Part shown: piece after piece, positions 18,183-50,579 of the stretch | How positions within the stretch are numbered: position 1 is the first letter of the stretch | How the letters are laid out: every line of letters starts with the position of its first letter | DNA from: Archivesica marissinica | Lineage: Eukaryota; Mollusca; Bivalvia; Venerida; Vesicomyidae | Direction: 5' to 3' | Assembly (NCBI GenBank): GCA_014843695.1 | Contig: CM026400.1 | Span: 48,213,301-48,277,300 of the forward strand | DNA: 64,000 nt | Made by a program: the position numbers and the translations under genes | Notes under the pieces: model-generated | Databases searched by the model: none | Told to the model about the DNA's origin: nothing | What the model saw: the letters and a program-made list of their open reading frames with translations, nothing else

Positions 18183-18317
18183 CTAATTGGATGGATCTGG
18201 CGTGAACCTTAGGTAACTTTTCCCAGAAGGCACGTTGCAGACAGTGACACCTTTAGGAAATAAGGCTTTTGCTTCGTCAGCTCCCACAGATGGGACGACC
18301 ATACATTTATCTCCAGG
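18183..18317 (-). CDS. PRDX6: PRDX6 exon 6 (last coding exon)
   Basis: TTTTCAG acceptor before 18317. Encodes [20 protein letters not shown] through [10 protein letters not shown] and TAG (18185-18183); 44 residues. It enters in phase 0, as the end of exon 5 requires. Confidence 0.95.
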   Translation of the reverse strand, partial: PGDKCMVVPSVGADEAKALFPKGVTVCNVPSGKSYLRFTPDPSN

Positions 18318-21300
18318 CTGAAAACAGAAACATCGAGTGTTGTCAAACTTATTTGATTTAGCGTAATGCACTAACAGCTGAGGTCATCAAGCCTTGTAAC
18401 GGGTAAACGATATACTTTACTTGTAACGGGTAAACGATATACTTTACTTGTAACGGGTAAACGATATACTTACTTGTAACGGGTAAACGATATACTTTAC
18501 TTGTAACGGGTAAACGATATACTTTACTTGTAACGGGTAAACGATATACTTTACTTGTAACGGGTAAACGATATACTTTACTTGTAACGGGTAAACGATA
18601 TACTTTACTTGTAACGGGTAAACGATATACTTTACTTGTAACGGAAACAAACACGTAAACGATATACTTTACTTGTAACGGGTAAACGATATACTTTACT
18701 TGTAACGGGTAAACGATATACTTTACTTGTAACGGGTAAACGATATACTTTACTTGTAACGGGTAAACGATATACTTTACTTGTAACGGGTAAACGATAT
18801 ACTTTACTTGTAAACGATATACTTTACTTGTAAACGATATACTTTACTTGTAAACGATATACTTTACTTGTAAACGATATACTTGTAAACGATATACTTT
18901 ACTTGTAACGGGTAAACGATATACTTTACTTGTAACGGGTAAACGATATACTTTACTTGTAACGGGTAAACGATATACTTTACTTGTAACGGGTAAACGA
19001 TATACTTTACTTGTAACGGGTAAACGATATACTTTACTTGTAACGGGTAAACGATATACTTTACTTGTAAACGATATACTTTACTTGTAAACGATATACT
19101 TTACTTGTAAACGATATACTTTACTTGTAACGGGTAAACGATATACTTTACTTGTAACGGGTAAACGATATACTTTACTTGTAACGTGTAAACGATATAC
19201 TTTACTTGTAACGGGTAAACGATATACTTTACTTGTAAACGATATACTTTACTTGTAAACGATATACTTTACTTGTAACGTAAACGATATACTTTACTTG
19301 TAATGGGTAAACGATATACTTTACTTGTAACGGGTAAACGATATACTTTACTTGTAACGGGTAAACGATATACTTTACTTGTAACGGGTAAACGATATAC
19401 TTTACTATTCTGTCCATTATACTTTACTATTCTGTCCGTTATACTTTACTACAATGTCCGTTATACTTTACTATTCTGTCCATTATACTTTACTATTCTG
19501 TCCATTATACTTTACTATTCTGTCCGTTATACTTTACTACAATGTCCGTTATACTTTACTACAATGTCCATGTCCGTTATACTTTACTATTCTGTCCGTT
19601 ATACTTTACTATTCTGTCCATTATACTTTACTATTCTGTCCGTTATACTTTACTACAATGTCCGTTATACTTTACTACAATGTCCATTATACTTTACTAT
19701 TCTGTCCGTTATTATACTTTACTATTCTGTCCGTTATACTTTACTACAATGTCCGTTATACTTTACTATTCTGTCCGTTATACTTTACTATTCTGTCCGT
19801 TATACTTTACTATGTCCTTATACTTTACTACAATGTCCGTTATACTTTACTACAATGTCCGTTATACTTTACTATTCTGTCCGTTATACTTTACTATTCT
19901 GTCCGTTATACGTTACTATTCTGTCCATTATACTTTACTCCGATATATTTTACCATAATGTAGGATATATTTTACCATAATGTAGGATATATTTTACCAT
20001 AATGTAAGATATATTTTACCATAATGTAGGATATATTTTACCATAATGTCGGATATATTTTACCATAATGTAGGATATATTTTACCATAATGTAGGATAT
20101 ATTTTACCATAATGTAGGATATATTTTACCATAATGTACGATATATTTTACCATAATGTAGGATATATTTTACCATAATGTCGGATATATTTTACCATAA
20201 TGTCGGATATATTTTACTATTCTGTGCGTCAGAGTATATTGACAGAGAATATCCATAACGTCCGATTTATCCCGAAATGAATATTTTTGTTTTACATTTG
20301 GTCTTAAAATCACACCAACAGCATAGGTCAGTCATATGACGACTTGAAGAACATAGGTCAGTCATATGACGACTTGAAGAACATAGGTCAGTCATATGAT
20401 GACTTGAAGAACATAGGTCAGTCATATGACGACTTGAAGAACATAGGTCAGTCATATGACGACTTGAAGAACATAGATCAGTCATATGACGACTTGAAGA
20501 ACATAGGTCAGTCATATGACGACTTGAAGAACATAGGTCAGTCACATGATGACTTGAAGAACATAGGTCAGTCATATGATGACTTGAAGAACATAGGTCA
20601 GTCATATGACGACTTGAAGAACATAGGTCAGTCATATGATGACTTGAAGAACATAGGCCAGTCATATGATGACTTGAAGAACATAGGTCAGTCATATGAC
20701 GACTTGAAGAACAATTTTACTAATTGTATTGCTCCTTTATATTTGTATCTTGCCAAGAAGAGTTTTGTTTATTCTATAAACACCTGCTAATATTCCACTG
20801 TATTGTAGGTGGTGCAATGCTTTAAAAGCATGGTTCACCAGGCTGTCGATTTGCCAGTTGTAGAGGCATGGTTCACCAGGCTGTCAGTTTGCCAGTTGTA
20901 GAGACATGGTTCACCTGGCTGTCTATTTGCCAGTTGTAGAGGCATGGTTCACCTGGCTGTCTATTTGCCAGTTGTAGAGACATGGTTCACCTGGCTGTCT
21001 ATTTGCCAGTTGTAGAGGCATGGTTCACCTGGCTGTCAGTTTGCCAGTTGTAGAGACATGGTTCACCTGGCTGTCTATTTGCCAGTTGTAGAGGCATGGC
21101 TCACCTGGCTGTCTATTTGCCAGTTGTAGAGACATGGTTCACCAGGCTGTCAATTGTAGAGGCATGGTTCACCAGGCTGTCAGTTTGCCAGTTGTAGAGG
21201 CATGGTTCACCAGGCTGTCAGTTTGCCAGTTGTAGAGGCATGGTTCACCTGGCTGTCTATTTGCAAGTCATAGTAGCATGGTTCACTGAGCTGTCAATTT

Positions 21301-24300
21301 GCCAGTCATAGAAGCATGGTTCACCGAGCTGTCAATTTGCCAGTCATAGAAACATGGTTCACCGGACTGTCAATTTGCCAGTCATAGAAACATGGTTCAC
21401 CGGGCTGTCAATTTGCCAGTTGTAGAGACATGGTTCACCTGGCTGTCTATTTGCCAGTTGTAGAGGCATGGTTCACCTGGCTGTCTATTTGCCAGTTGTA
21501 GAGACATGGTTCACCTGGCTGTCTATTTGCCAGTTGTAGAGGCATGGTTCACCTGGCTGTCAGTTTGCCAGTTGTAGAGACATGGTTCACCTGGCTGTCT
21601 ATTTGCCAGTTGTAGAGGCATGGCTCACCTGGCTGTCTATTTGCCAGTTGTAGAGACATGGTTCACCAGGCTGTCAATTGTAGAGGCATGGTTCACCAGG
21701 CTGTCAGTTTGCCAGTTGTAGAGGCATGGTTCACCTGGCTGTCTATTTGCAAGTCATAGTAGCATGGTTCACTGAGCTGTCAATTTGCCAGTCATAGAAG
21801 CATGGTTCACCGAGCTGTCAATTTGCCAGTCATAGAAACATGGTTCACCGGACTGTCAATTTGCCAGTCATAGAAACATGGTTCACCGGGCTGTCAATTT
21901 GCCAGTCATAGAAGCATGGTTCACCGGGCTGCCAATTTGCCAGTCATAGAAACATGGTTCACCGGGCTGTCAATTTGCCAGTCACAGAAGCAGGGTTTGT
22001 CGAGTTGTAAAATGGTGAATAATTGGTAGATAAGAACCCCCCCCCAGACTGGAGGGTCATAACTTTATCTACATATGGTGCAGCAAGACTGACCCGGAGA
22101 GAACAAGCGACCTTCCATAACATATAATTATGTTGTACAGTGACCACTTTCAATATTTACCTTCCAGTTCGCTGGTGTGGCTACTTTCTTCTGAGCCGTC
22201 AACTGGAGGGACTCCACAACTCTCAATATTTCACTGAAAATATATATTGCAAATCTCATAATCCCATCAAATCTGGTCCATTCTTCTATATAGCTCTTAA
22301 CCAGCCAGCCAATGGAATCACACACAAATGACTGCTTAGCACAGGTGGCTACTTAATAGAGGTCAAATGTATAACAAAGTAACATATTGGGAATCTGAAA
22401 ACTGGCTGTTTAATAGAGGTGACCACTAACACAGGTTTGACTGTATATCCACCATGCTTCAAATTCATCACCTATATATCCACAAAGTTTCAAAAAAATT
22501 CATCAACACTTTTTTGAGTTAATCTGCTATCAGACAGACAGACAAACAGACAGACACGCAGCAAAACTTAATAACCCCTGCTCCTATGGTGGATTCAATA
22601 CAAGCTTGAAATAACAATGTTTTATTGCAGATAAACGCAGTAATTTACTTTTTGCGTATTTACATATTTTACCCCTTTTAAGCAGCCACCTGTTATAAGC
22701 AGTCACTTTCTATACTTATATTGACTGGCTGCTAAACTCATTGCATGCTGGGTAAAATAGAGGCTATAAATAGTTCAAATAATTGTAGCAGCCGAAAATT
22801 CATTACTATGTTTTTCTTGTTAATTTTATAACTGTAAACTCTGGAAATATGTCATGGAATATGTTTTTTCTTATTAATTTTATAACTGGAAATATGTCAT
22901 GGAATATGTTTTTCTTATTAATTTTTTAACTGTAAACTCTGGAAATATGTCATGGAATATGTTTTTTCTTATTAATTTTATAACTGTAAACTCTGGAAAT
23001 ATGTCATGGAATATGTTTTTTCTTATTAATTTTATAACTGTAAACTCTGGAAATATGTCATGGAATATGTTTTTTCTTATTAATTTTATAACTGTAAACT
23101 CTGGAAATATGTCATGGAATATGTTTTTTCTTATTAATTTTATAACTGTAAACTCTGGAAATATGTCATGGAATATGTTTTTTCTTATTAATTTTATAAC
23201 TGTAAACTCTGGAAATATGTCATGGAATATGTTTTTTCTTATTAATTTTATAACTGTAAACTCTGGAAATATGTCATGGAATATGTTTTTTCTTATTAAT
23301 TTTATAACTGTAAACTCTGGAAATATGTCATGGAATATGTTTTTTCTTATTAATTTTATAACTGTAAACTCTGGAAATATGTCATGGAATATGTTTTTTC
23401 TTATTAATTTTATAACTGTAAACTCTGGAAATATGTCATGGAATATGTTTTTTCTTATTAATTTTATAACTGTAAACTCTGGAAATATGTCATGGAATAT
23501 GTTTTTTCTTATTAATTTTATAACTGTAAACTCTGGAAATATGTCATGGAATATGTTTTNNNNNNNNNNNNNNNNNNNNNNNNNNNNNNNNNNNNNNNNN
23601 NNNNNNNNNNNNNNNNNNNNNNNNNNNNNNNNNNNNNNNNNNNNNNNNNNNNNNNNNNNNNNNNNNNNNNNNNNNNNNNNNNNNNNNNNNNNNNNNNNNN
23701 NNNNNNNNNNNNNNNNNNNNNNNNNNNNNNNNNNNNNNNNNNNNNNNNNNNNNNNNNNNNNNNNNNNNNNNNNNNNNNNNNNNNNNNNNNNNNNNNNNNN
23801 NNNNNNNNNNNNNNNNNNNNNNNNNNNNNNNNNNNNNNNNNNNNNNNNNNNNNNNNNNNNNNNNNNNNNNNNNNNNNNNNNNNNNNNNNNNNNNNNNNNN
23901 NNNNNNNNNNNNNNNNNNNNNNNNNNNNNNNNNNNNNNNNNNNNNNNNNNNNNNNNNNNNNNNNNNNNNNNNNNNNNNNNNNNNNNNNNNNNNNNNNNNN
24001 NNNNNNNNNNNNNNNNNNNNNNNNNNNNNNNNNNNNNNNNNNNNNNNNNNNNNNNNNNNNNNNNNNNNNNNNNNNNNNNNNNNNNNNNNNNNNNNNNNNN
24101 NNNNNNNNNNNNNNNNNNNNNNNNNNNNNNNNNNNNNNNNNNNNNNNNNNNNNNNNNNNNNNNNNNNNNNNNNNNNNNNNNNNNNNNNNNNNNNNNNNNN
24201 NNNNNNNNNNNNNNNNNNNNNNNNNNNNNNNNNNNNNNNNNNNNNNNNNNNNNNNNNNNNNNNNNNNNNNNNNNNNNNNNNNNNNNNNNNNNNNNNNNNN

Positions 24301-27300
24301 NNNNNNNNNNNNNNNNNNNNNNNNNNNNNNNNNNNNNNNNNNNNNNNNNNNNNNNNNNNNNNNNNNNNNNNNNNNNNNNNNNNNNNNNNNNNNNNNNNNN
24401 NNNNNNNNNNNNNNNNNNNNNNNNNNNNNNNNNNNNNNNNNNNNNNNNNNNNNNNNNNNNNNNNNNNNNNNNNNNNNNNNNNNNNNNNNNNNNNNNNNNN
24501 NNNNNNNNNNNNNNNNNNNNNNNNNNNNNNNNNNNNNNNNNNNNNNNNNNNNNNNNNNNTGGCTGTCTATTTGCCAGTTGTAGAGGCATGGCTCACCTGG
24601 CTGTCTATTTGCCAGTTGTAGAGACATGGTTCACCAGGCTGTCAATTGTAGAGGCATGGTTCACCAGGCTGTCAGTTTGCCAGTTGTAGAGGCATGGTTC
24701 ACCTGGCTGTCTATTTGCAAGTCATAGTAGCATGGTTCACTGAGCTGTCAATTTGCCAGTCATAGAAGCATGGTTCACCGAGCTGTCAATTTGCCAGTCA
24801 TAGAAACATGGTTCACCGGACTGTCAATTTGCCAGTCATAGAAACATGGTTCACCGGGCTGTCAATTTGCCAGTCATAGAAGCATGGTTCACCGGGCTGC
24901 CAATTTGCCAGTCATAGAAACATGGTTCACCGGGCTGTCAATTTGCCAGTCACAGAAGCAGGGTTTGTCGAGTTGTAAAATGGTGAATAATTGGTAGATA
25001 AGAACCCCCCCCCAGACTGGAGGGTCATAACTTTATCTACATATGGTGCAGCAAGACTGACCCGGAGAGAACAAGCGACCTTCCATAACATATAATTATG
25101 TTGTACAGTGACCACTTTCAATATTTACCTTCCAGTTCGCTGGTGTGGCTACTTTCTTCTGAGCCGTCAACTGGAGGGACTCCACAACTCTCAATATTTC
25201 ACTGAAAATATATATTGCAAATCTCATAATCCCATCAAATCTGGTCCATTCTTCTATATAGCTCTTAACCAGCCAGCCAATGGAATCACACACAAATGAC
25301 TGCTTAGCACAGGTGGCTACTTAATAGAGGTCAAATGTATAACAAAGTAACATATTGGGAATCTGAAAACTGGCTGTTTAATAGAGGTGACCACTAACAC
25401 AGGTTTGACTGTATATCCACCATGCTTCAAATTCATCACCTATATATCCACAAAGTTTCAAAAAAATTCATCAACACTTTTTTGAGTTAATCTGCTATCA
25501 GACAGACAGACAAACAGACAGACACGCAGCAAAACTTAATAACCCCTGCTCCTATGGTGGATTCAATACAAGCTTGAAATAACAATGTTTTATTGCAGAT
25601 AAACGCAGTAATTTACTTTTTGCGTATTTACATATTTTACCCCTTTTAAGCAGCCACCTGTTATAAGCAGTCACTTTCTATACTTATATTGACTGGCTGC
25701 TAAACTCATTGCATGCTGGGTAAAATAGAGGCTATAAATAGTTCAAATAATTGTAGCAGCCGAAAATTCATTACTATGTTTTTCTTATTAATTTTATAAC
25801 TGTAAACTCTGGAAATATGTCATGGAATATGTTTTTTCCTATTAATTTTATAACTGTAAATTCTGGAAATATGTCATGGAATATGTTTTTCCTATTAATT
25901 TTATAACTGTAAACTGTGGAAATATGTCATGGAATTGTTTTCTACTAATGAAATTGCGCGACATATTTGCATGATTCTTATTTTCCCCGCTAGTGTGCAG
26001 AGAGCTAAGGCAGGTTGGACTGTACTGTACACGCTTTCATCCAAGCCAACAAGAGTGATTAATATATAAGTTGTCAAAGTTTGTTCTACAATCCTCATAA
26101 AAAAAAGAAGTGTCTGATTAGCGCAGTGGTTAGCGCGCTCGCTTCTCACCAATGCAACCCGGGTTCGATCCTCGGACCGGGAAGTATGTGAGATGGTACG
26201 GTGGTCGCCAGATTGGACAGGTGGGTTTTCTCGGGTACTCCAGTTTCCTCCCACACGAATGACCACATATACGCTTTCATCCGAGCCAACGAGAATGATT
26301 AATATAAGTTGTTAGAACTTGTTTCGCAATCGTTGTAAAATAAATAAAGTTTAAAAAAAAAGAGCAAAAGCAGTAATACATTCACTAACTTCCTGAATTA
26401 CGATTCATTGTAATTTTACACTTGTACGATCTGATAAACATAATAATCTTTACCTTCAAACAACCTTCACGTTAAAGCTTAACATTTGTTAACAGGTTAA
26501 CAGGTTAACATAACCATTTGCGAACGTGCTAGTCCTATAAATATTATATTTGACGGTTCATTAAAGCTATATTCCTGTATAATGTATACATATATTCCTG
26601 TATAATGTATACATATATTCCTGTATAATGTATACATATACCGGTATGTGTACAGAATGTTCAATAATAGTGTGATAAGTCTCTTCTTTTTTTTAAACTT
26701 GACATTGAAAGTAGGGAGATTTGGCTTCTGAAAGTGGGAGATTTGGCTTCTGAAAGTGGAAGATTTGGCTTCTGAAGTAGGGAGAATTGGCTTCTGAAGT
26801 AGGGAGATTTGCTTCTGAAAGTGGGAGATTTGGCTTCTGAAGTACATGTAGGGATATTTGGCTTCTGAAAGTGAAGAGATTTGGCTTCTGAAGTAGGGAG
26901 GTTTGGCCTCTGAAAGTAGGTAGATTGGATATCTGAAAGTAGGGAGATTGGCTTCTGAAAGTGGGAGATTTGGTTTCTGAAGTAGGGAGGTTTGGCTTCT
27001 GAAAGTGAAGAGATTTGGCTTCTGAAGTAGGGAGATTTGGCTTCTGAAGTAGGGAGTTTTGTTTTTAGTCTTTTTTTGTTCGGCTCTTTTCATAGCTCCT
27101 TTTCACAGTAAAAAATGAAAATAGCAAAGAAATGATGTTCATTAAAGATATTTATGTTTATTAGTGTAGGATAGGATTTTATTTCCTCTTGTGATCATCG
27201 TAATTTGTATTTTCATGAGATGAAATAAAATCCTATCTTACTATCATTTGCTATGTATACCCCGCACATTTACGATGTAGAATTTGTCTAGTGCGCAGTA

Positions 27301-30300
27301 TACACGGGTACAGCCATCATGACATTTTTTTCATCACGGGATACAACACACAGGAATACAACATGGGGATACAACTTACTCAAAATTTCTTCCCGTTGTA
27401 GCAGGATACAACATTGACAGCATCAGCTTGCATCCGGGGCCGATGATATATACCTAAAACAGATGATAGTATGTTCGTAATCCGGGGCCAACGATAAATA
27501 CATAAATCATAAAATAGTATGTTCATAATCCGGGGCCGACGATAAATACCTAAATCATATAATAGTATGTTCATAATCCGGGGCCGACGATAAATACCTA
27601 AATCATAAAATAGTATGTTCGTAATCCGGGGCCGACGATAAATACCTAAATCATAAAATAGTATGTTCGTAATCCGGGGCCGACGATAAATACCTAAATC
27701 ATAAAATAGTATGTTCATAATCCGGGGCCGACGATAAATACCTAAATCATATAATAGTATGTTCATAATCCGGGGCCGACGATAAATACCTAAATCATAA
27801 AATAGTATGTTCGTAATCCGGGGCCGACGATAAATACCTAAATCATATAATAGTATGTTCATAATCCGGGGCCGACGATAAATACCTAAAGCATATAATA
27901 GTATGTTCATAATCTGGGGCCGATGATAAATACCTAAATCATATAATAGTATGTTCGTAATACGGGGCTAATGATAAATACTTAAATCATATAATAGTAT
28001 GTTCGTAATACGGGGCTAATGATAAATACCTAAATCATATAATAATATGTTCGTAATCCGGAGCTAATGATAAATACCTAAATCATATAATAGTATGTTC
28101 GTAATACGGGGCTAATGATAAATACCTAAATCATATAATAATATGTTCGTAATCCGGGGCCGACGACAAATACCTAAATCATATAATAATATGTTCATAA
28201 TCACAGATTTTAGAAATGTAAAAAACTCTTCAAATTGAAGATAATTGGTGAAGATGTCATGTTTATCCAGGCATACGTGATACAAGGTTAGATCATTGGT
28301 TACGGTTTATAGGGTCCAGGCATACGTGATACAAGGTTAGATCATTGGTTACGGTTTATAGGGTTCAGGCATACGTGATACAAGGTTAGATCATTGGTTA
28401 CGGTTTATAGGGTCCAGGCATACGTGATACGAGGTTAGATCATTGGTTATGGTTTATAGGGTCCAGGCATACCTGATACGAGGTTAGATCATTGGTTATG
28501 GTTTATAGGGTCCAGGCATACGTGATACAAGGTTAGATCATTGGTTATGGTTTATAGGGCCCAGGCATACGTGATACAAGGTTAGATCATTGGTTATGGT
28601 TTATAGAGTCCAGGCATACGTAATACAAGGTTAGATCATTGGTTATGGTTTATAGGGTCCAGGCATACGTGATACAAGGTTAGATCATTGGTTACGGTTT
28701 ATAGGGTCCAGGCATACGTGATACAAGGTTAGATCATTGGTTACGGTTTATAGGGTCCAGGCATACGTGATACAAGGTTAGATCATTGGTTACGGTTTAT
28801 AGAGTCCAGGCATACGTGATACGAGGTTAGATCATTGGTTATGGTTTATAGAGTCCAGGCATACGTAATACAAGGTTAGATCATTGGTTATGGTTTATAG
28901 GGCCCAGGCATACGTGATACAAGGTTAGATCATTGGTTACGGTTTATAGAGTCCAGGCATACGTGATACAAGGTTAGATCATTGGTTATGGTTTATAGGG
29001 TCGAGAGTATGTGATGTCATATTGATATGGTACAGTCATACATGATATAAGTTAATATCATTGGTTACGGTTTATAGGGTCCAGGCATACGTGATACAAG
29101 GTTAGATCATTGGTTACGGTTTATAGGGTCCAGGCATACGTGATACAAGGTTAGATCATTGGTTACGGTTTATAGAGTCCAGGCATACGTGATACGAGGT
29201 TAGATCATTGGTTATGGTTTATAGAGTCCAGGCATACGTAATACAAGGTTAGATCATTGGTTATGGTTTATAGGGCCCAGGCATACGTGATACAAGGTTA
29301 GATCATTGGTTACGGTTTATAGAGTCCAGGCATACGTGATACAAGGTTAGATCATTGGTTATGGTTTATAGGGTCGAGAGTATGTGATGTCATATTGATA
29401 TGGTACAGTCATACGTGATATAAGTTAATATCATTGGTTACGGTTTATAAGGTCCAGTCATACGTGATATAAGTTAATATCATTGGTTACGGTTTATAAG
29501 GTCCAGTCATACGTGATATAAGTTAATATTATTGGTTAAGGTTTATTGGGTTGAGAGTATGTGATCGCAGGATAGATAAACCTACTTACAGCTCTGCAAG
29601 TGAGAGGCATTCCTTTATTGTCCTTCTCTGCTGGGTCCAGCATACCCAGCTGTACGGCAAGGGTGCGCTTGCTGTCATCGATGATTGGGATGTCAAATGA
29701 TTTAGCCTTATTATGTGCTATGATATCCTACAAAAAGGTCATAAAATATATAAATGAAAAATTATTAACATTGTATTCGTATTTTGTGGAAATCGTGATA
29801 GTGCAGTGGTAGCGTGTTCGCTTCAGGTGCGAAAGGGCCAGGGTTTGCGCCCAGCTGTAGCCGTAACGTTTGTGGCCTTAGGCTTGGCATTTAAATTCCA
29901 CATGCCTTCTCTCCCTCATGGCGATGGATTCCATCAGGAATGAGGTCTTGAAGAGTGATTAATATAAGTTGTAGGAACTTGTTTCGAAATCGAGCTGAAA
30001 TTAATTTGTATAAACTAACATTGCATTCATTTCAGACAAATTTGGGACAGATGGTGCACATTACAATATGGATGGGTAGAGCCCAGATCGACAGAGAGTG
30101 AATGAGACTTTATCTATAGAGGGTAACTTCCTTGAGACCCTCTATTTTAATTAAAACATACAGTCGAACCGGTCTTAAGCAGCAAGCTAATGGAATCTCA
30201 TAGAGTGGCTGCTTAGCATAGAGTGGCTGCTTAATGGAGGATAAATCTATAATAAAGTAACATATCTGGAAACTGGCTGCTTAATACAGGTTGGCTGCTT

Positions 30301-33300
30301 AATACAGTTGACCACTAACACAGGTTGGACTCTATATACACATCAAACCTGTGTTAGTGGTCACCTCTATTAAGCAGCCAACCTGTATTAAGCAGCCAGT
30401 TGCCAGATTCCCAATATGTTGTTTTGTTATATATTTGACCTCTATTAAGCAGCCACCTGTGTTAAGCAGCCACTTTCTGTGATTCCCTTGGCTGGCTGCT
30501 TAACACAGGTTTGACTGTATACAATAAAACACTGTTGTGATGTCATACCTGTACTTGCAGTATACAAATACAAAAAACAAGTTTGTTTTAAAGGTTTAAA
30601 GTCTCACTAACACTGAGCACTATTTCAGGCACAGATGGGTACCCAGGTAGAACCACCAACCTACAACAGACCAGCTTTGAGACCCCCAGTGGAATTCAAA
30701 CCTACAGCGGTCATTCGTGTGGGAGGAAACCCACCTGTCCAATCTGGCGACCACCGTACCATCTCACATACTTCCCGGTCAGAGGATCGAACCCGAGTTG
30801 CATTGGTGAGAAGCGAGCGTGCTAACAAGAGATTCAAATTGTAAACTATCCGATTTCATACTTAGTCTAGTAATATCTTCACAAGCTTGTGGATTTATAT
30901 CTACACATGTAGTTAGTTTATACAAATTTATTTTAGCTCGATTGCGAAACAAGTTCTTTCAAACTTGTATTAATCACTCTCGAGACCTCATTCCTGATGG
31001 AATCCATCGCCATGAAGGAGAGAAGAGGGAATGTGGAATTTAAATGCCTTGCCTAAGGGCACAATCGTAACGGCTCCAGCGGGGCTCGAACTCCGGACCT
31101 TTCGCACCTGAAGCGAACGCGCATCCACTGCACTATCACGACTTATATCTAGTTCTAGAATGTACCTTCCCGGAACCCATTGCACGATAACGGTGAAAAC
31201 AACAGCAACGAACGACACAATTCCAACGAGGTTCCGTACCAGGGAAATACGTCATGCAATTTCAATACAATTGTGCCGTAACGTCACAATTCTGATAAAA
31301 TTGTACGATATATTTCCAGAGTTTTCAGTTACAAATAAGAAAAACACAATAATGAATTGTCGTCTGCTACAATTATTGGATCTATTTATAGCCTTTTTAT
31401 TTACCCAGCATGCAAAACAGTTAAATAGAGAAACCTGCTGTTGTAAAGATATGGTACCGTACCGGGGTCCAGCCTTTGTGACTCTTAACGTCATCAACGG
31501 ACAGAGCTATCAGTTTCACGCCCTTCTTCGTGAACGTGGCGGCCATACTGTTGGCCATACCGAGTTCTGTGGTACATACTGGTGTGTAGTCAGCAGGGTG
31601 CGAAAACAGGATTGCCCACCTGAAAATAACATCTAATTTTAGAAATTTATCGATATGCTACATCGCCACTTTCACGTCCATTAATTAATCCTTTGTAGGC
31701 TGAGTAAATAAAATCACATTTGCAAACAACATCGATCCAGATCAGCCGAGGCGCAATGCCGCATCTGATCAGGATCTATGTTGTTTGCTAGTCAGCCAAG
31801 TGTTTTAGCTCCACTTTCCAAATAGCAAACAGCATAGAGCCTGATCAGATGTAGCATTATGCCATCTTATTTGCTATTCAGACAAGTGTTTTAGCTCCAC
31901 TATCCAAACAGCATAGAGCCTGATCAGACGGTACATTCTGGCTCTATGCTGTTTGCAAAAGTGATTTTATCTGCCGCTAGCGTTTTAACAGGTTAATGGT
32001 GATTTATCATGAACGACATATAACAATATGTGTAGTCAAACTTGTCTTAAGCAGCCAGCCAATGGAATCACAGAAAGTGGCTACTTAGCACAGGTGGCTG
32101 CTTAATAGAGGGGAAACATATATAATAATACAACATATCAAGAATCGGGAAACTGGCTGCTTAATACAGGTTAGCTGCTTAATACAGGTGGCTGCTTAAT
32201 AGAGGAGATACGTATATAATACTGTAAGTTAGCTGCTTCGCTTACAACATTATTTATTTCAATAGTTTACATGTAATCCGGAATTAACCGTTAATTAACC
32301 GTTAATTCCTATGCGTCAGAACTCCAAACCATGTTTTATCTGCCAATCAAGAACTTAGAGACAAAATTATTAATATTATTTCTGTTTAAATCAATTATTT
32401 TCTATTGCAAATGTGTCCCAAGAATACCTCCATAAAGTCATGCAGCTCTGTGAACGTGCAGTACATGTTTCTCTTATCATTAACAACTACAGTCAAACCT
32501 GTCTTAAGCAGCCAGCCAAAGGAATCATTGAAAGTGGCTGCTTAGCACAGGTGGCTGCTTAATAGAGGTAAAATGTATAATAAAACAGCATATTGGGAAT
32601 ATGGAAACTGGCTGCTTAATGGAGGCGATCACTAACACAGGTTTGACTGTATTTATAAATATTTCCTATTCCATTTTATATTATAAGACTGGTTGCTATA
32701 GTAACACATTTTCACGAAACAGTCATTTTCACAGAGTTTCCATAACAGCGATAATGGATACTCACAATTTTGTTGAAATTAACTGCTAAATGTTCTCGCC
32801 TCTTCATGGTTCATTTTAGGTCAGAATGTTTAGGAGAATTGAGAAAGCGCGATTGCATCCTTAAAAGCACTCCCTTAACCCATTTCATTCTGGATACCGT
32901 TCAAACAGTATTTGCAAAGAACATAGAGCCAGATCAACCGCCACGGAACGTGCCGTCTGATCAGGCTCTATGCTGTTTGCTATTCAGATGATCTTGCTAA
33001 GACACTGGCTATATAGCAAACAACATAGTTTGCAAAAGCCTTTAAAGGCGTATAGCACAATAATTGATAATCGTCAAAAAAAATTTAAACTTTGCATATA
33101 TTTAGATTAGACATTTCCATGTATGAAAATATTTTAAAACTAGTGGGTCCCCGTGCTCGTTTTTGAGTTATGAGCAATTGAAGAGTGGTACCGTGTACAC
33201 ATTATTGGTCCAAATTTTGACGTCAAAAATGAGCATACAAATTCCTTTAAACATACATAAAAACACTAGAAAATGAGTTTAGTTCCATTTAATATTGCAT

Positions 33301-48300: not shown

Positions 48301-50579
48301 GTTTGATGACGCCAACATCGTTGAACGTGACCGGTTTCAGGGAGGTTCAGTAATGATATGGGCAGCTGTCTCCCTTCATACGAAAACAAGGGCGGTTGTT
48401 GTTCCTGGCATATTGAATGCACAACGTTACCAAAATGAAATTCTGACGCCAGTGGCGATACCTCATATTCGCCAACATAGGGGCATGCAGTTCATGCACG
48501 ATGGCGCAACTTGTCACACCGCGGCCAGTACCCGAATGCTACTGGCCAGGAATCACATCAATGTCCTGCCATGGTGTTCGAAATCGCCAGATTTAAATCC
48601 CATCGAACACCTCTGGGATGAACTAGGACGCAGGATTCGACAACTTCGCCGCCAACCTCGCACTCTTCAAGAGCTAGAACGTGCCCTGATTCGGACATGG
48701 AACTCTATTCCACAGGTCTACATTACGAATTACATCAATTCCATGCATTCTAGGTGTAATGCAGTCATTAGGGCGCAGGGCGGTCACACTCGGTATTGAT
48801 GTATTCATTATGTTACTTTATATTTTAGGGTTACGTTATTGTACAGGTTACGGATTAATAAAATTACGTCCGATTATTATTATTGTTATGTTTTTTTAAC
48901 ACAAAATGATCACTTAACATTGTGTCCAATTTTCAGTAAAATATTTTATTATTTGACACAGATAACAAAAAACTAAGTGTGGAGTTAGAAAAGTTGCTAA
49001 GTATATATCTACCTCTATCCCTAACCTCTTTATACATTGTCCTAGCACCACGCCTGTGTATATAACACAGACAAAATACCAGTGGCATTGAGTAGTAGAA
49101 TAACTGAAACGTGTACATATTGATTACCTGGCACCCATGTACAACACAAGCAGACAGCATATCTATGCGATATTTTAGAGAGAAGTCCAGCGAAATATGT
49201 GCTATATATATAGTACATGTATTCCAAGTGATCTGGGGTCTCACTTAGTCTGGGAACAGGCGTCGATATATTTTGCCTGGTCAGTCAAATAAATATATTT
49301 TAAGACCAAGACCATTAATTGGGCCATATTGAGCTTCTGATCATATCTACGTCATTTTGCTAGAAGTTAAAAAGTGAAAAATCGACATGACTGGAACCCA
49401 GGCTAGGTCTCGCATTTTACCGAATAACCCAGGCTAGGTCTCACTTTTTACCGAATAACCCAGGCTAGGTCTCACTTTTTACCGACTAACCCAGGCTAGG
49501 TCTCACATTTTACCGACTAACCCAGGCTAGGTCTCACATTTTACCGACTAACCCAGGCTAGGTCTCACTTTTTACCGACTAACCCAGGCTAGGTCTCACT
49601 TTTTACCAACTAACCCAGGCTAGGTCTCACTTTTTACCGAATAACCCAGACTAGGTCTCACTTTTTACCGACTAACCCAGGCTAGGTCTCACTTTTTACC
49701 GACTAACCCAGGCTAGGTCTCACTTTTTACTGAATAACCCAGGCTAGGTCTCACTTTTTTACCGACTAACCCAGGCTAGGTCTCACATTTTACCGACTAG
49801 AAACAACTAGAGCCGGCTAGAGGTTTATTGTAAATAATTATTGCTGACCAGAAGAAATATATCAAACATTTTATAGATCTATATACAAGGCCATACAACC
49901 AAAGTTCTACTAAATTAATCCTGCTATAAAGCAGTAGTTACCATTATTCATTCGTCAGACAGCACAGACTAGAGATTCTAGTATTTGGACACGGACCCAC
50001 CTGTTTTACACCAATATTGGATAGGCATAACACTTAATTCTTTGTTTATCTAACAATGACATCTAGTTTAGTTTAATCATATTTCATTGCTTTTATCAAT
50101 TACATGTGTAATACAACAGCAAGAGATACAATACATAAATGGTGATACATGTAAATTGAAAAAACAAATGGTTTGGTCCACAAGTTTTGCCAACATTAGT
50201 AATCGGCCCGCACCAGAATGTCACACAACCGATTAATTAAACTAAATGACAGATTTTTGGTTAGTAATACGAACAAAAAACTAATGAAAAATGGGGAAAC
50301 TGATTGTCTTTGAATAATATTTTAAAAGAAAAACAACATTAAATGAGAGGGGGAGAATGTGACATAACCCGCTGTTCCACCAAGGACTCCACACTGACGC
50401 GCCAAAACCCGAACTAAAGTCATCAGCGCATTGCGTCTAATTACTTCTATGACATCTAATTAAATAAACGCTAGTATAACAACATACCCTTTATCGCCAA
50501 CCCATTTGTGGAATTCAATTGGTCCTTCTGTAGTTTCCGCCTTAAAATCAGGAAAAACTTCACCCAAATTGATACCCAT
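18183..50579 (-). CDS. PRDX6: Peroxiredoxin-6 (1-Cys peroxiredoxin), six exons over 32.4 kb
   Basis: Join on the minus strand: 50579-50488, 31619-31463, 29727-29590, 27453-27380, 25201-25129 (duplicate 22233-22161), 18317-18183. Every junction has GT/AG and matching phase. The 222-aa product matches peroxiredoxin-6 end to end (human 224). It reduces H2O2 and lipid hydroperoxides in the cytosol. Peroxidatic Cys46 sits in PVCTTE, with T43, H38 and R128 also conserved. The C-terminal Prx domain includes [19 protein letters not shown]. Residues of the phospholipase A2 site known in mammals are not kept: the GDSWG motif is GDKGWA and the D140 equivalent is Gly136, so only peroxidase activity is expected. 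Introns: ~18.9, 1.7, 2.1, 2.2-5.1 and 3.8-6.8 kb, full of satellites. Exon 5 occurs twice; both together would shift the frame (73 nt). Confidence 0.95.
18390..19405. repeat. 27/20-bp tandem array in PRDX6 intron 5
   Basis: Long unit GTAACGGGTAAACGATATAC plus TTTACTT (27 bp); a short form lacks ACGGGTA (20 bp). The two forms alternate in blocks. About 40 copies. It starts ~70 bp upstream of exon 6 in the transcript direction. Confidence 0.95.
19401..19939. repeat. 22-bp tandem array (TCCGTTATACTTTAC)
   Basis: Two unit types, TATTCTGTCCGTTATACTTTAC-like and TACAATGTCC-, about 24 copies. Shares ATACTTTACT with the array to its left and AATGT plus TTTTAC-like positions with the array to its right. 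Confidence 0.95.
19940..20222. repeat. 22-bp tandem array (GATATATTTTACCATAATGT)
   Basis: About 12 copies, near identical (GTAGG, GTCGG and GTAAG variants). Same length and alignable with the preceding 22-bp unit. Confidence 0.95.
20317..20712. repeat. 30-bp tandem array, 13 copies, SINE-seeded
   Basis: Unit GACTTGAAGAACATAGGTCA plus GTCATATGAC. The sequence just left of it (CACCAACAGCATAGGTCA) matches the tail region of SINE family E (GCACCAACAGCTTAGGTCA at 9615). As 30 is divisible by 3, open frames run on both strands but encode no recognisable protein. Confidence 0.9.
20830..21985. repeat. 38-bp tandem array, about 30 copies
   Basis: Unit GTCAGTTTGCCAGTTGTAGA plus GGCATGGTTCACCAGGCT, with two variant classes (CAGTTGTAGAG and CAGTCATAGAA). 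A block of ~490 bp recurs (the AAGTCATAGTAGC marker at about 21264 and 21750), so there is higher-order duplication. Confidence 0.95.
22161..22233 (-). CDS. PRDX6: PRDX6 exon 5, second copy (probable assembly duplicate)
   Basis: 73 nt with ATTTTCAG acceptor and GGTAAAT donor; encodes [20 protein letters not shown] and ANWK. Identical to 25129-25201, at a constant offset of 2968. Entry phase needs 2 nt from exon 4 and exit is phase 0, so the two copies cannot both be spliced in without a frameshift. Confidence 0.85.
22292..22444 (+). mobile_element. TA-MITE, CAGTCAAACCTG family, partial
   Basis: Ends CACAGGTTTGACTG; the left TIR is eroded (TAGCTCTTAACCAGCCAGCC). Duplicated at 25260-25412 as part of the contig-end repeat. 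Confidence 0.65.
22738..23559. repeat. 54-bp tandem array growing from a T5 MITE, left contig end
   Basis: CATTGCATGCTGGGTAAAAT (T5 MITE left end) leads into about 13 near-identical 54-bp units containing TAACTGTAAACTCTGGAAAT and ATGTCATGGAATATG. The sequence breaks off into Ns at 23560. The open frames on both strands (18-residue period) are a by-product. Confidence 0.9.
23560..24559. other. Assembly gap, exactly 1000 N
   Basis: Undetermined bases. The round length indicates a placeholder gap. Both flanks are tandem repeats, and the right flank duplicates the left contig from about 21592 onwards. Confidence 0.99.
24560..24968. repeat. 38-bp tandem array, duplicate segment
   Basis: Matches 21592-22000 at constant offset 2968 in the stretches compared. 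Confidence 0.95.
25129..25201 (-). CDS. PRDX6: PRDX6 exon 5, first copy in transcript order
   Basis: See the gene entry. The acceptor AG is at 25203-25202 and the donor GT follows 25129. The first base completes Asp154 begun by exon 4. Confidence 0.9.
25260..25412 (+). mobile_element. TA-MITE, duplicate of 22292-22444
   Basis: Same sequence at offset 2968. Confidence 0.65.
25705..25995. mobile_element. T5 MITE with three 54-bp units and an intact right end
   Basis: CATTGCATGCTGGGTAAAAT at the left, three copies of the 54-bp unit, then ATTTGCATGATTCTTATTTT and CCGCTAGTGTGCAGAGAG at the right. Gives the short form of what is a long array in the left contig. Confidence 0.65.
26110..26355 (+). 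mobile_element. tRNA-derived SINE, family B, full length
   Basis: Head GATTAGCGCAGTGGTTAGCG (A box), GCTCGCTTCTCACCAATGC, B box GGGTTCGATCCTCGGACC. Body GTGGTCGCCAGATTGGACAG and TTTCCTCCCACACGAATGAC; tail GAATGATTAATATAAGTTGT and TGTAAAATAAATAAAGTTT plus A-run. Shares its 3' tail style with SINE A. Other copies: 30711-30826, 36785-37010, 43484-43570 (tail) and 54603-54845. Confidence 0.9.
26360..26699. other. PRDX6 intron 4 sequence with minor repeats
   Basis: Contains three GGTTAACA units near 26495 and three 23-bp units (ATTCCTGTATAATGTATACAT) at about 26570-26640. No gene seen. Confidence 0.5.
26700..27062. repeat. ~20-bp degenerate tandem array
   Basis: About 17 copies of GTAGGGAGATTTGGCTTCTGAA with frequent 1-3-bp indels. 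Confidence 0.9.
27170..27245. repeat. Short inverted repeat (hairpin)
   Basis: AGGATAGGATTTTATTTC pairs with GAAATAAAATCCTATCTTA across a ~38-bp loop. Possibly a small foldback element in intron 4. Confidence 0.6.
27380..27453 (-). CDS. PRDX6: PRDX6 exon 4
   Basis: 74 nt; acceptor TTTTAG before 27453, donor GTAAGT after 27380. Encodes [20 protein letters not shown] plus GRNF and two bases of Asp154. Its first ~22 nt and its acceptor are the template of the 48-bp array directly upstream in the transcript (27462-28195). Confidence 0.95.
27454..28197. repeat. 48-bp array derived from the PRDX6 intron 3/exon 4 junction, about 15 copies
   Basis: Plus-strand unit: ATCCGGGGCCGACGATAAAT, ACCTAAATCATATAATAG, TATGTTCATA. 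On the transcribed strand every unit has a polypyrimidine-poor TTTAG followed by GTATTTATCGTCGGCCCCGGA, which in the PRDX6 frame reads VFIVGPG, i.e. the start of exon 4 (VYIIGPG). Each copy thus carries a potential decoy acceptor. Because 48 is divisible by 3, a spurious frame (27380-27910) spans many units. Confidence 0.95.
28245..29560. repeat. 49-bp array in PRDX6 intron 3, about 25 copies
   Basis: Unit CCAGGCATACGTGATACAAG, GTTAGATCATTGGTTACGGT, TTATAGGGT. A ~330-bp block (from about 28670 to 29035) is repeated at about 29050-29400, including a divergent unit TCGAGAGTATGTGATGTC. The transcribed strand carries ATCTAACC in most units, close to the animal branch-point consensus CTAAC. Confidence 0.95.
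29590..29727 (-). CDS. PRDX6: PRDX6 exon 3
   Basis: 138 nt in phase 0. Acceptor TTTTTGTAG, donor GTAAGT. Encodes [20 protein letters not shown] through [20 protein letters not shown] and PLTCRA; Arg128 is the conserved active-site arginine. Confidence 0.95.
29786..30017 (+). mobile_element. SINE family A, full length
   Basis: Head CGTGATAGTGCAGTGGTAGC, GTTCGCTTCAGGTGCGAAAG; body GTAACGTTTGTGGCCTTAGG, CTCATGGCGATGGATTCCAT; tail AGTGATTAATATAAGTTGTA ... TTTGTATAAAC. Confidence 0.85.
30161..30518. mobile_element. Two TA-MITEs (CAGTCAAACCTG family) in inverted tandem
   Basis: Left copy 30161-30333 (plus), right copy about 30345-30518 (minus), separated by ~12 bp. Together they form a near-palindrome with ~170-bp arms, with TA preceding the left end and following the right end. 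Confidence 0.75.
30711..30826 (-). mobile_element. SINE family B, head fragment
   Basis: Complement of GTTAGCACGCTCGCTTCTCA, the B box and GTGGTCGCCAGATTGGACAG; the tail is lost. Confidence 0.8.
30914..31143 (-). mobile_element. SINE family A, full length
   Basis: Complement of CGTGATAGTGCAGTGGATGC, CAGGTGCGAAAGGTCCGGAG, TTCGAGCCCCGCTGGAGCCG, ending in AAATTTGTATAAACTA. It sits in PRDX6 intron 2. Confidence 0.85.
31270..31440 (-). mobile_element. T5 MITE fragment beside PRDX6 exon 2
   Basis: Complement of GCATGCTGGGTAAA..., AGGCTATAAATAGATCCAAT and TTCATTATTGTGTTTTTCTT. It lies 23 bp from the exon 2 donor. Confidence 0.6.
31463..31619 (-). CDS. PRDX6: PRDX6 exon 2 (peroxidatic Cys exon)
   Basis: 157 nt; acceptor ATTTTCAG, donor GTACGG. 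Encodes [20 protein letters not shown] (His38, Thr43, Cys46) through [18 protein letters not shown]. The donor is weaker than the consensus. Confidence 0.95.
31689..31992. mobile_element. TTAA-MITE family T3
   Basis: TTAA at both ends (about 31685-31688 and 31993-31996). Internal CAAACAACATCGATCC / ATCTATGTTGTTTGC hairpin and AAACAGCATAGAGCCTGATC repeats. Confidence 0.65.
32032..32220 (+). mobile_element. TA-MITE (CAGTCAAACCTG family), partial
   Basis: AGTCAAACTTGTCTTAAGCA at the left. The interior repeats GGCTGCTTAATACAGG. The right TIR is lost. Confidence 0.6.
32490..32649 (+). mobile_element. TA-MITE (CAGTCAAACCTG family), intact
   Basis: TA at 32488-32489 and 32650-32651; termini CAGTCAAACCTGTCTTAAGC and complement of CAGTCAAACCTGTGTTAGTG. 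160 bp. Serves as the reference for the family. Confidence 0.85.
32879..34048. mobile_element. TTAA-MITE (T3/T4) carrying a nested element
   Basis: TTAA at 32875-32878 and 34049-34052; TIRs CCCATTTCATTCTGGATAC and complement of CCCATTCCATTCTGAATAC. Left part holds the AACATAGAGCCAGATC / GATCAGGCTCTATGCTGTTT hairpin of T3. It is interrupted at 33042 by a second TTAA element. Confidence 0.75.
33046..34023. mobile_element. Nested TTAA element (AGGCGTATA ends), ~980 bp
   Basis: TTAA at 33042-33045 and 34024-34027; termini AGGCGTATAGCACAAT and complement of AGGCGTATATCACAAT. A 113-codon open frame on the minus strand (34008-33667) includes [15 protein letters not shown] but matches no domain I can name. 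Superfamily inferred as piggyBac-like from TTAA. Confidence 0.65.
34078..34298 (+). repeat. Dispersed repeat, copy 1
   Basis: AATACAATATTTGAATAGAA ... GGAGTGCTTTATAATG ... CCCTAGGGGGCGAAG. Its reverse complement lies at about 46085-46376. Confidence 0.65.
34343..34646. mobile_element. T5 MITE interrupted by a SINE A fragment
   Basis: CTCTTTGCACGCTAGCGTGG at the left; CAACATGCAAAGAG then TTAA (34647-34650) at the right. The SINE A body and tail at 34431-34542 separates the two halves. Confidence 0.65.
34431..34542 (+). mobile_element. SINE family A, 3' fragment
   Basis: GGCGATGGATTCCATCAGGA to AATTTGTATAAAC. Confidence 0.8.
35075..35250. repeat. 39/40-bp array, block 1
   Basis: About 4-5 copies of GCCCATAACATCGAGTGCAC plus ATGTCAAGCTGCATATCATT. 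Confidence 0.9.
35251..35550. repeat. ~310-bp segment duplicated at 36137-36440
   Basis: TTATACAATAAGGGCAAATA ... TGATCAAGTTTCCATTCTTT. Follows array block 1 as its copy follows block 2, so array plus flank were duplicated together. Confidence 0.85.
35695..35763 (+). mobile_element. SINE family C, internal fragment
   Basis: GTTCGATCCCCCGTCTGACC to GTGCACGTAAAAGAC. It is fused directly to array block 2. Confidence 0.75.
35764..36136. repeat. 39/40-bp array, block 2, about nine copies
   Basis: Same unit as block 1, GCCCGTAACATCGAGTGCAC plus ATGTCAGCTGCATATCATT. Confidence 0.9.
36137..36440. repeat. Copy 2 of the ~310-bp flank
   Basis: Near identical to 35251-35550. It carries an internal inversion-like hairpin AACATGTTGAAAAAATGC / GCATTAAAATGATTCAACAT. 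Confidence 0.8.
36440..36628. repeat. ~62-bp direct repeat, three copies
   Basis: GAATGCTAATTCATTTGGCT, CAAGGTTGAAACCATTAAGA, CAACAAGGAAGTCATCGGGC. Confidence 0.85.
36785..37010 (-). mobile_element. SINE family B, near full length
   Basis: Tail complement TTTATTTTACAACGATTGCG at the left, head GGTTAGCGCGCTTGCTTCTC at the right; B box slightly mutated (GGTTAGATCC). Confidence 0.85.
37168..38150. repeat. 34-bp tandem array, about 29 copies
   Basis: GAGGCATAATACTGTGCTTC plus CTGCCAAGTTTGGT; almost the only variation is GCATAA/GTATAA. Very homogeneous, hence young or recently homogenised. No stop in the unit on the minus strand, so frames up to 333 codons appear and are spurious. Confidence 0.95.
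38150..38425. repeat. ~87-bp direct repeat, three copies
   Basis: ATGCAACAATGGTTTGAAAA, GATCTACAAATGGATGCCTA, CATGACTACCCC. Confidence 0.85.
38690..42482. repeat. 14-bp tandem array, about 270 copies (3.8 kb), with ~1.5-kb higher-order repeats
   Basis: Unit AGCATTGTGCTTGC with frequent single-base variants (TAGTG, CATCAT, TTGTAGC, TGTGCCTGC). Blocks recur: a variant string at about 39823-40023 is repeated at 41329-41529 (offset 1506), and 39177 onwards recurs at 40709 onwards (offset 1532). 14 is not a multiple of 3, so all frames cycle; open frames up to 363 codons are spurious. Confidence 0.95.
42650..42775. repeat. 18-bp tandem array, about seven copies
   Basis: GCCCGTAACCGAGGGTTT with minor variants. 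Confidence 0.9.
42814..42897 (+). mobile_element. SINE family A, 3' fragment
   Basis: CACATGGCGATGGATTCTAT ... CAGCTAAAACAAATTTGCAT, with a small internal deletion. Confidence 0.65.
42900..43235. other. Intron 1 unique sequence
   Basis: I see no gene or clear repeat. Confidence 0.4.
43240..43455. repeat. 51-bp tandem array, four copies
   Basis: CCACTCTATACTGGCCATTA, TATGTGGGATTTACACCGGG, CATAGGTTCCA. A multiple of 3, so frames stay open on both strands. Confidence 0.9.
43484..43570 (+). mobile_element. SINE family B, tail fragment
   Basis: GCCAACGAGAGTGATTATAA to TAAATAAAGTTCAAAC. A second tail piece lies at 43650-43690. Confidence 0.75.
43995..44095 (-). mobile_element. TTAA-MITE family T2, right-end fragment
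   Basis: TTAA at 43991-43994 followed by CCCATTCACCACCAAGTAAC; runs to CATTTGGACCAGTTC. Confidence 0.65.
44121..44366 (-). mobile_element. SINE family D, second copy
   Basis: Complement of GTCCGCCTCCGTGGTCGAGT, GGTTCGAGACCCGCTCAGGC and GCCTGTCCAGGAAAGG. A small deletion removes part of the anticodon region. Confidence 0.8.
44393..44480 (-). mobile_element. T5 MITE, right-end fragment
   Basis: GTAACTGAAAACTGTAAATA, TGTCATTGAATTTCATTCGA, CTGCTAGCGTGCAACGAG. Confidence 0.5.
44536..44722 (-). mobile_element. SINE family E-related, degraded
   Basis: Complement of GGGGCCGAGTGGCTACGGTC (A box) and the TGTCGCACCGAAAGC tail edge; the body contains a TTATTGGTGGAGGAAGACAG segment also seen at 52088 and 54900. 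Confidence 0.5.
44764..44942 (+). mobile_element. SINE family C, head-truncated
   Basis: GTTCGATCACCTGTCCAACC, GTGCACGTAAAACAACGAGA, TCTTCAGGAGGCGTCGCCTA. Confidence 0.75.
44963..45198 (+). mobile_element. SINE family A, full length
   Basis: GTGATAGCGCAGTGGATGCG, GTGCGAAAGGTCCGGAGTTC, GAGCCCCGCTGGAGCCGTTA; tail to AAATTTGTATAAACTA. The best-preserved head of the family. Confidence 0.85.
45245..45870 (-). mobile_element. LINE 3' fragment (same family as 13.8-16.0 kb)
   Basis: The minus strand reads [28 protein letters not shown], then after a stop and shift [16 protein letters not shown] and [19 protein letters not shown]. These align with the WVSIYRFINN, FRFKLLN, CDVPESYEHVF and IVIGYKISQPDYF segments of the other copy. 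It ends in an A-rich run (T-rich on the plus strand, about 45245-45268). Confidence 0.7.
46085..46376 (-). repeat. Dispersed repeat, copy 2
   Basis: Reverse-complement relative of 34078-34298 (CATTATAAAGCACTCC, TTCAAATGTTGTATTTAATGG). Confidence 0.6.
46377..46715. other. Intron 1 sequence with C-rich patches
   Basis: Several (C)7-8 runs; no gene seen. Confidence 0.4.
46716..47005. repeat. 36-bp tandem array, about eight copies
   Basis: GTGGATTTTATTAACTGGAT plus GCGGGTTGCAGTGCTT. A multiple of 3, so the frames are open but spurious. Confidence 0.9.
47150..47212. repeat. 21-bp repeat, three copies
   Basis: ACAATTGGCAGTAATCTTGGG. Confidence 0.85.
47668..48799 (+). CDS. Tc1-like transposase, apparently intact, with one intron
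   Basis: Join 47668-47739 and 47855-48799 gives 338 codons, the usual Tc1 length. Exon 1 encodes [20 protein letters not shown] plus SNRQ; donor GTAAGC and acceptor CCTTTCAG bound a 115-bp intron; exon 2 resumes [12 protein letters not shown], completing the first helix-turn-helix. Without splicing, the frame from 47747 would lack this start. The catalytic triad is complete: Asp in LFSDESRF, Asp in [11 protein letters not shown], Glu in NPIEHLWDE 34 residues later (DD34E), and the chain ends GGHTRY. No stop or frameshift is present. The protein binds transposon ends and performs cut-and-paste transposition in the nucleus. It lies in PRDX6 intron 1 on the opposite strand. I could not identify its inverted repeats with confidence. 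Confidence 0.85.
48800..49394. other. Element flank and intron 1 sequence
   Basis: AT-rich; a possible AATAAA follows the transposase at about 48858. No further gene seen. Confidence 0.4.
49395..49800. repeat. 31-bp tandem array, about 13 copies
   Basis: GACTAACCCAGGCTAGGTCT plus CACTTTTTACC, variants CATTTTACC and GAATAACC. Confidence 0.95.
49801..50487. other. PRDX6 intron 1, first 700 nt in transcript order
   Basis: Unique sequence next to the exon 1 donor. No repeat or gene recognised. Confidence 0.5.
50488..50579 (-). CDS. PRDX6: PRDX6 exon 1
   Basis: ATG at 50579-50577. Encodes [20 protein letters not shown] plus [10 protein letters not shown] and GG of Gly31; donor GTATGT after 50488. 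The frame extends upstream to a more distal ATG (50696), but homology to peroxiredoxin-6 starts exactly at the internal Met, so I place the start there. Confidence 0.93.

What the first reader, a model, noticed from the sequence alone, without database searches (positions are those of the whole stretch)
27380..28197. A satellite made from an intron/exon junction: ~15 decoy 3' splice sites stacked in front of PRDX6 exon 4
Each 48-bp unit repeats the last bases of intron 3 (..TTTAG) plus the first ~22 nt of exon 4. In the gene's frame the units read VFIVGPG, against VYIIGPG in the real exon, and then hit a stop. The real exon is the 3'-most member. A spliceosome scanning from exon 3 meets about 15 look-alike acceptors first, so use of any decoy would truncate the protein. 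How the true site is chosen, and whether copy number tunes PRDX6 output, is open. The decoys' VF is closer to vertebrate exon 4 (VFVFGP) than the present exon.
Basis: partly seen in the sequence, partly recalled or inferred. Interest (0 to 1): 0.8.

Follow-up and report, generated by a model that had tools for sequence, protein, structure and literature searches.

The report
Splice-junction minisatellite ("mirage") in PRDX6
In a clam-like genome, the junction where an intron meets exon 4 of the antioxidant gene PRDX6 has been copied head-to-tail about 15 times; it matches the "mirage" repeats known from amphioxus, and similar repeats at other genes here make it a test of how cells pick the right splice site.

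Summary
On the minus strand a 48-bp unit (26 nt of intron 3 end plus the first 22 nt of PRDX6 exon 4) occurs 15 times directly upstream of the real exon 4, which is the 16th and last copy. It derives from exon 4: a whole-genome DNA search matched only two places, both PRDX6 loci. All 24 decoys of the two loci keep Phe at the second codon, as do 119 of 119 parsed homologs; both real exons have Tyr. The decoys are thus older copies of the exon edge. Array length differs between the loci, 16 vs 10 units. Decoy use in register would give a stop after 8 or 15 codons in 24 of 24 cases. This is the structure called "mirage" in amphioxus (globins, Adh, troponin C, PGBD5), reported there not to disturb splicing. 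New here: a bivalve-like genome, with acceptor- and donor-side examples at kinesin exons too, and 40% tandem repeat in the window. Likeliest reading: a tolerated by-product of rampant tandem duplication. How the true site is chosen, and whether copy number regulates PRDX6, is untested.

The parts
27480..28199 (-). 15 decoy copies of the intron 3/exon 4 junction, 48 bp each (26 nt intron end + 22 nt exon start)
27432..27479 (-). 16th unit = the real intron 3 end (27479-27454) and first 22 nt of exon 4 (27453-27432)
27380..27453 (-). PRDX6 exon 4, 74 nt
27454..29589 (-). PRDX6 intron 3, 95% in tandem arrays (measured over 27454-29586)
28266..29565 (-). 49-bp arrays filling the upstream part of intron 3; matches found only at the two PRDX6 loci
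29590..29727 (-). PRDX6 exon 3, donor AGAGCT|GTAAGT
31463..31619 (-). PRDX6 exon 2 (contains TPVCTTE)
50488..50579 (-). PRDX6 exon 1, coding part
25129..25201 (-). PRDX6 exon 5 (a second copy, tblastn match 22238-22161, lies in the repeated flank of the N gap)
18183..18317 (-). PRDX6 exon 6 with stop codon

Best explanation
The array is a mirage: a minisatellite founded by tandem duplication of the 48 bp that straddle the intron 3/exon 4 boundary of PRDX6, then expanded and partly homogenised by slippage or unequal exchange. It can grow on the intron side only, because the copy joined to the rest of exon 4 must stay functional. The founding predates the Phe-to-Tyr change of the real exon and the split of the two PRDX6 loci. 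In the RNA the decoys are intron. The real acceptor is most likely chosen because most decoys have weaker pyrimidine tracts, because it alone is joined to the whole exon and lies nearest the exon's donor, and because decoy products carry an early stop and should be removed by nonsense-mediated decay. Shown: structure, origin, polarity, copy-number difference, stops. Inferred: duplication mechanism, splice choice, decay, lack of function. It is most likely a tolerated by-product of a high tandem-duplication rate in this genome.
For: Unit = junction, real copy terminal. Phe in 24 of 24 decoys and in 119 of 119 parsed homologs (1 of 120 not parsed); Tyr in the real exon of both loci. Two loci found in the genome, both PRDX6. 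16 vs 10 units although a 1736-bp intron 2 alignment is 98.85% identical. The second locus holds an intermediate unit, with a real-type CTGTTTTAG and a decoy-type TTT (unit 8). Decoy variation is alike in intron and exon parts (1.19 vs 1.27 minor letters per site over 24 decoys), as expected without coding constraint. TRF arrays cover 40% of the window and 43% of 30 kinesin match loci. The same kind recurs at kinesin acceptor and donor junctions. Amphioxus mirages are reported not to interfere with regular splicing.
Against: No RNA evidence was available, so normal splicing is inferred. In the second locus one decoy (unit 8) outscores the real acceptor on a generic matrix, 9.9 vs 7.1, so weaker decoys cannot be the whole story. 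The matrix values are recalled, not trained on this species. Loss of AG in the decoy next to the real site is not shared by the second locus. The 3-nt GAT match at the array edges is 1 nt in the second locus, so the founding mechanism is open. The array DNA of other bivalves was not available.
Confidence: 0.82

Rival explanations
1. The decoy array tunes PRDX6 output: a copy-number-dependent share of transcripts is spliced to a decoy, meets a stop and is degraded, so array length sets expression.
For: 13 of 15 window decoys and 9 of 9 in the second locus keep AG|GT in register; all 24 frames stop 8-15 codons in, 74-746 nt (window) or 74-479 nt (second locus) upstream of the exon 4/5 junction, beyond the recalled 50-nt rule; copy number differs, 16 vs 10; one decoy of the second locus outscores the real site.
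Against: Decoy exon and intron parts vary alike; most decoys have weaker acceptors; amphioxus mirages are reported not to disturb splicing. No expression data were available.
Confidence: 0.1
2. Recursive splicing: each AG|GT unit is a zero-length exon; splicing to a decoy rebuilds a donor and the intron is removed stepwise without harm.
For: Acceptor AG and GT are juxtaposed in 13 of 15 window decoys.
Against: The donor rebuilt on exon 3 (GCT|GTATTT) scores -0.2 against 6.0 for the native donor on a recalled generic matrix; intron 3 is only 2.1 kb.
Confidence: 0.04
3. Assembly artefact: the array or its length is produced by misassembly of a repeat.
For: The window does contain a likely assembly fault: flanks of the N gap at 23560-24559 repeat each other at 98.9% over 1383 bp.
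Against: Units carry different substitutions in a structured order, and the array recurs at a second locus with its own unit order.
Confidence: 0.04

Closest known systems
Mirages of amphioxus (globins BflGb6 and BflGb9, Adh3, troponin C, PGBD5)
   Same: Minisatellite-like tandem duplication across an intron/exon boundary, AG/GT signals in many but not all units, authentic boundary kept at the cluster edge, 6 vs 3 units in two BflGb6 haplotypes, acceptor- and donor-side cases (PMC3087553 and PMC3902484, passages only).
   Different: Here a bivalve-like genome, PRDX6 and kinesins; 15 decoys in one frame; decoys keep a residue that the real exon has lost.
Human IFI6 (6-16) minisatellite
   Same: A minisatellite that supplies repeated splice signals (one sentence and the title of Turri 1995 in the reference list of PMC4526556; the 1995 paper is not held).
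   Different: Donor side, and repeat units are used as donors there; use of the PRDX6 decoys is unknown.
Variable internal tandem repeats at exon-intron boundaries of human segmental-duplication genes
   Same: Minisatellite copy-number change at an exon-intron boundary, with use of cryptic splice sites (PMC2812944, passages).
   Different: There repeats within genes are reported to turn into novel introns in some cases; here the extra copies lie in an existing intron.
Intron gain by tandem duplication of AGGT-containing segments
   Same: Tandem duplication across AG|GT (title and start of abstract of PMC4974935; model discussed in a passage of PMC3087553).
   Different: No new intron or exon is seen in PRDX6 here.

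Membership tests
Mirage (intron/exon-boundary minisatellite) | Tandem repeat unit spans an intron/exon boundary | tested here: met
   26 nt intron + 22 nt exon per unit
Mirage (intron/exon-boundary minisatellite) | Many units carry AG/GT splice signals | tested here: met
   13 of 15 window decoys, 9 of 9 in the second locus
Mirage (intron/exon-boundary minisatellite) | Authentic boundary is the array-edge copy, set apart from the inner units | tested here: met
   in the window unit 16 differs from all 15 decoys at four sites; in the second locus unit 8 is intermediate
Mirage (intron/exon-boundary minisatellite) | Unit number varies between haplotypes | tested here: inconclusive
   16 vs 10 units at two loci; allele or paralog not settled
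Mirage (intron/exon-boundary minisatellite) | Regular splicing undisturbed | not testable with these tools
   no RNA reads available
Recursive splice site | Juxtaposed acceptor and donor | tested here: met
   AG|GT in 13 of 15 window decoys
Recursive splice site | Good regenerated donor | tested here: not met
   -0.2 vs 6.0 for the native donor on a recalled matrix
IFI6-type donor minisatellite | Repeated unit carries the donor site | tested here: not met
   the PRDX6 unit carries the acceptor; donor-side arrays exist at kinesin loci

The most novel reading that the evidence does not exclude
Splice-junction satellites are a genome-wide, fast-changing class in this bivalve lineage, arising at acceptors and donors of many genes; their copy number differs between alleles and shifts a fraction of transcripts into decay, giving heritable expression noise or tuning, and they store fossil versions of exon edges.
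Probability: 0.13. Interest if true: 0.82.

Novelty: new member of a known kind. Interest (0 to 1): 0.52.

Why it matters
Under the name mirage, only amphioxus cases turned up in the searches made (open-licence papers, lists capped, most listed papers not opened). Finding the structure at PRDX6 and at several kinesin exons of a bivalve-like genome suggests that it arises wherever tandem duplication is rampant. Each array is a natural experiment on splice-site choice, with many near-identical acceptors or donors in one transcript, and a fossil of the exon edge.

Tried and rejected
RNA structure hiding the decoys: the strand 27376-28202 folds worse than 20 of 20 shuffles (z +6.6), so no special structure. 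Dispersed repeat origin: seven matches at two places, both PRDX6. AG exclusion zone as the selector: the decoy next to the real site has lost AG in the window (94 nt free of AG), but the second locus shows 46 nt; dropped as a general rule. Microhomology founding (GAT): 3 nt in the window, 1 nt in the second locus; too weak. Repeated kinesin and myosin matches that proved to be separate diverged exon copies, not mirages: L059 and L061. Relatives of a clam PRDX6 in viral contigs: none. Comparison of the exon 4 DNA in other bivalves was not possible; only proteins were available. A survey of ABC-transporter exons and a genome search for exon 1 did not complete. A paper on clam haemoglobin introns was checked for mirages: passages only, the word does not occur.

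Full report
What is there. The window lies in a 1.54-Gb genome. The best protein hit by E-value is a sea-urchin model (63%), but the highest identities among named hits include clams and mussels (Ruditapes 70%, under the source's name glutathione peroxidase A; Dreissena 68%, Mactra 67%, Mya 65%), so a bivalve is likely; the species was not identified. The minus strand carries a complete six-exon PRDX6 gene: 50579-50488, 31619-31463, 29727-29590, 27453-27380, 25201-25129, 18317-18183 (worked out); the joined protein of 222 residues matches PRDX6 structures along its length. Intron 3 is 95% tandem arrays: 49-bp arrays on the exon 3 side and the 48-bp array of the finding next to exon 4.

The 48-bp array. 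Cut in register it has 15 decoys (28199-27480) and the real junction as unit 16 (27479-27432). Each unit is 26 nt of intron end and 22 nt of exon start. The consensus matches 20 of the first 22 exon nt; 200,000 shuffles reached at most 17, four times. 13 of 15 decoys keep AG in register; unit 5 has AA and unit 15 AT. All share the reading frame, and read from the in-register site all stop after 8 or 15 codons, 74-746 nt before the exon 4/5 junction.

Origin and polarity. A search of the whole genome with 251 bp of array found seven matches at two places (the tool skips very common words and scored two candidates). The second place, C15:46661997-46662476 (plus strand), is again in front of PRDX6 exon 4, with 9 decoys and the real copy. 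A protein search found six PRDX6 exon matches, all at these two loci (exons 1, 4 and 5 were not matched even here, so short exons elsewhere could be missed). The second residue of exon 4 is Phe in 119 of 119 parsed homologs (the best 120 of 7955 hits were held; one could not be parsed), Phe (TTT) in 24 of 24 decoys, and Tyr (TAT) in both real exons. The decoys therefore descend from exon 4 before it changed. Unit 8 of the second locus is intermediate: real-type CTGTTTTAG, decoy-type TTT.

The second locus. Much of the window between about 10 and 50 kb is repeated inverted 1.58 Mb away; the pieces kept on that strand sum to 31.0 kb at a mean 91.8%, arrays and a few stray pieces included. Intron 2 is 98.85% identical over 1736 bp; exons 2 and 3 differ at 3 of 295 nt and exons 4 and 5 are identical; exon 6 was not compared in that script, but its translation shows one Ser/Gly difference. 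Exon 1 was not found in the 100 kb fetched (best match 17 nt); an assembly gap lies about 0.9 kb beyond the end of the match. Whether it is an allele placed apart or a recent duplicate is open. Either way the arrays differ, 16 vs 10 units.

How the true site may be chosen. So weaker pyrimidine tracts explain most but not all. The real site alone is joined to the full exon and lies nearest its donor. Products of decoy use should be decay targets (inference and the recalled 50-nt rule). The RNA shows no special fold (20 of 20 shuffles fold at least as well). Recursive splicing is unlikely because the rebuilt donor is poor.

What it is. [quoted passage not shown] PMC3902484, passage). The IFI6 minisatellite is a donor-side relative in idea, and variable repeats at exon-intron boundaries are described in human duplicated genes (PMC2812944, passages); more tandem repeats near intron-exon junctions are reported in introns of plants and especially green algae (PMC3887541, passages). 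No mollusc mirage was met in the searches made, which cover open-licence papers only, with capped lists, most of them not opened.

It recurs in this genome. A kinesin-domain search gave 125 matches, several of them copies within one array. TRF was run on the 30 loci that were cut automatically; 15 of 30 had an array within 60 bp of the match or overlapping it, 13 of those 15 were read, and 2 spanned a junction: a donor-side array of 58 bp x 11.5 on C17 (L041) and a two-copy 92-bp donor-side duplication on C17 (L028). Three further places were fetched because their matches repeated or overlapped: an acceptor-side array of 113 bp x 6 on C6 (27 nt intron + 86 nt exon; 5 decoys, 3 of which have CAG changed to CAT; L058) and a donor-side array of 95 bp x 3.3 on C18 (L060; its third copy has lost the donor G), while L059 was a pair of diverged exons. 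In a myosin search of 74 matches one repeated pair was fetched, L061, and it too was a pair of diverged exons. These picks are not an unbiased rate. Tandem repeats cover 40% of the window, 37% of 100 kb around the second locus and 43% of the 30 kinesin loci, so junction arrays may be expected as a by-product.

Verdict. A real splice-junction satellite whose polarity is settled, a new member of a known kind, in a mollusc-like genome. Its regulatory role is open and directly testable with RNA reads.

Noticed in passing
L058:685-1362 (C6:90883700-90885700): Second acceptor-side mirage, in a kinesin P-loop exon: 113 bp x 6, three of five decoys with the acceptor AG changed to AT.
   Followed up: partly
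L060 (C18:61503100-61504000, minus strand): Donor-side mirage in another kinesin-domain gene: 95 bp x 3.3, exon end plus GTAAGA donor; third copy has lost the donor G.
   Followed up: partly
L041:1657-2325 (C17, near 26663757): Donor-side mirage, 58 bp x 11.5, exon end CTTAGATTTGCCACAAAG plus GTGAGT.
   Followed up: partly
L028:1817-1997 (C17, near 63076824): Two-copy 92-bp duplication of an exon end and its donor in a kinesin-domain gene.
   Followed up: partly
window 20700-27000: Flanks of the 1000-N gap (23560-24559) repeat each other at 98.9% over 1383 bp, so PRDX6 exon 5 appears twice; probably an assembly fault.
   Followed up: partly
C15:46634780-46673478 (L008, L009, L013, L014): Inverted second copy of PRDX6 exons 2-6 1.58 Mb away, intron 2 98.85% identical; exon 1 not found in 100 kb, assembly gap nearby.
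   Followed up: partly
window 28266-29565: 49-bp arrays filling the rest of intron 3; matches found only at the two PRDX6 loci.
   Followed up: partly
whole window: 40% of the non-N window is tandem repeat by TRF.
   Followed up: partly
L061 (C5:100289250-100289900) and L059 (C6:90889100-90890500): Diverged duplicate exons in a myosin and a kinesin-domain gene, perhaps mutually exclusive exons.
   Followed up: partly
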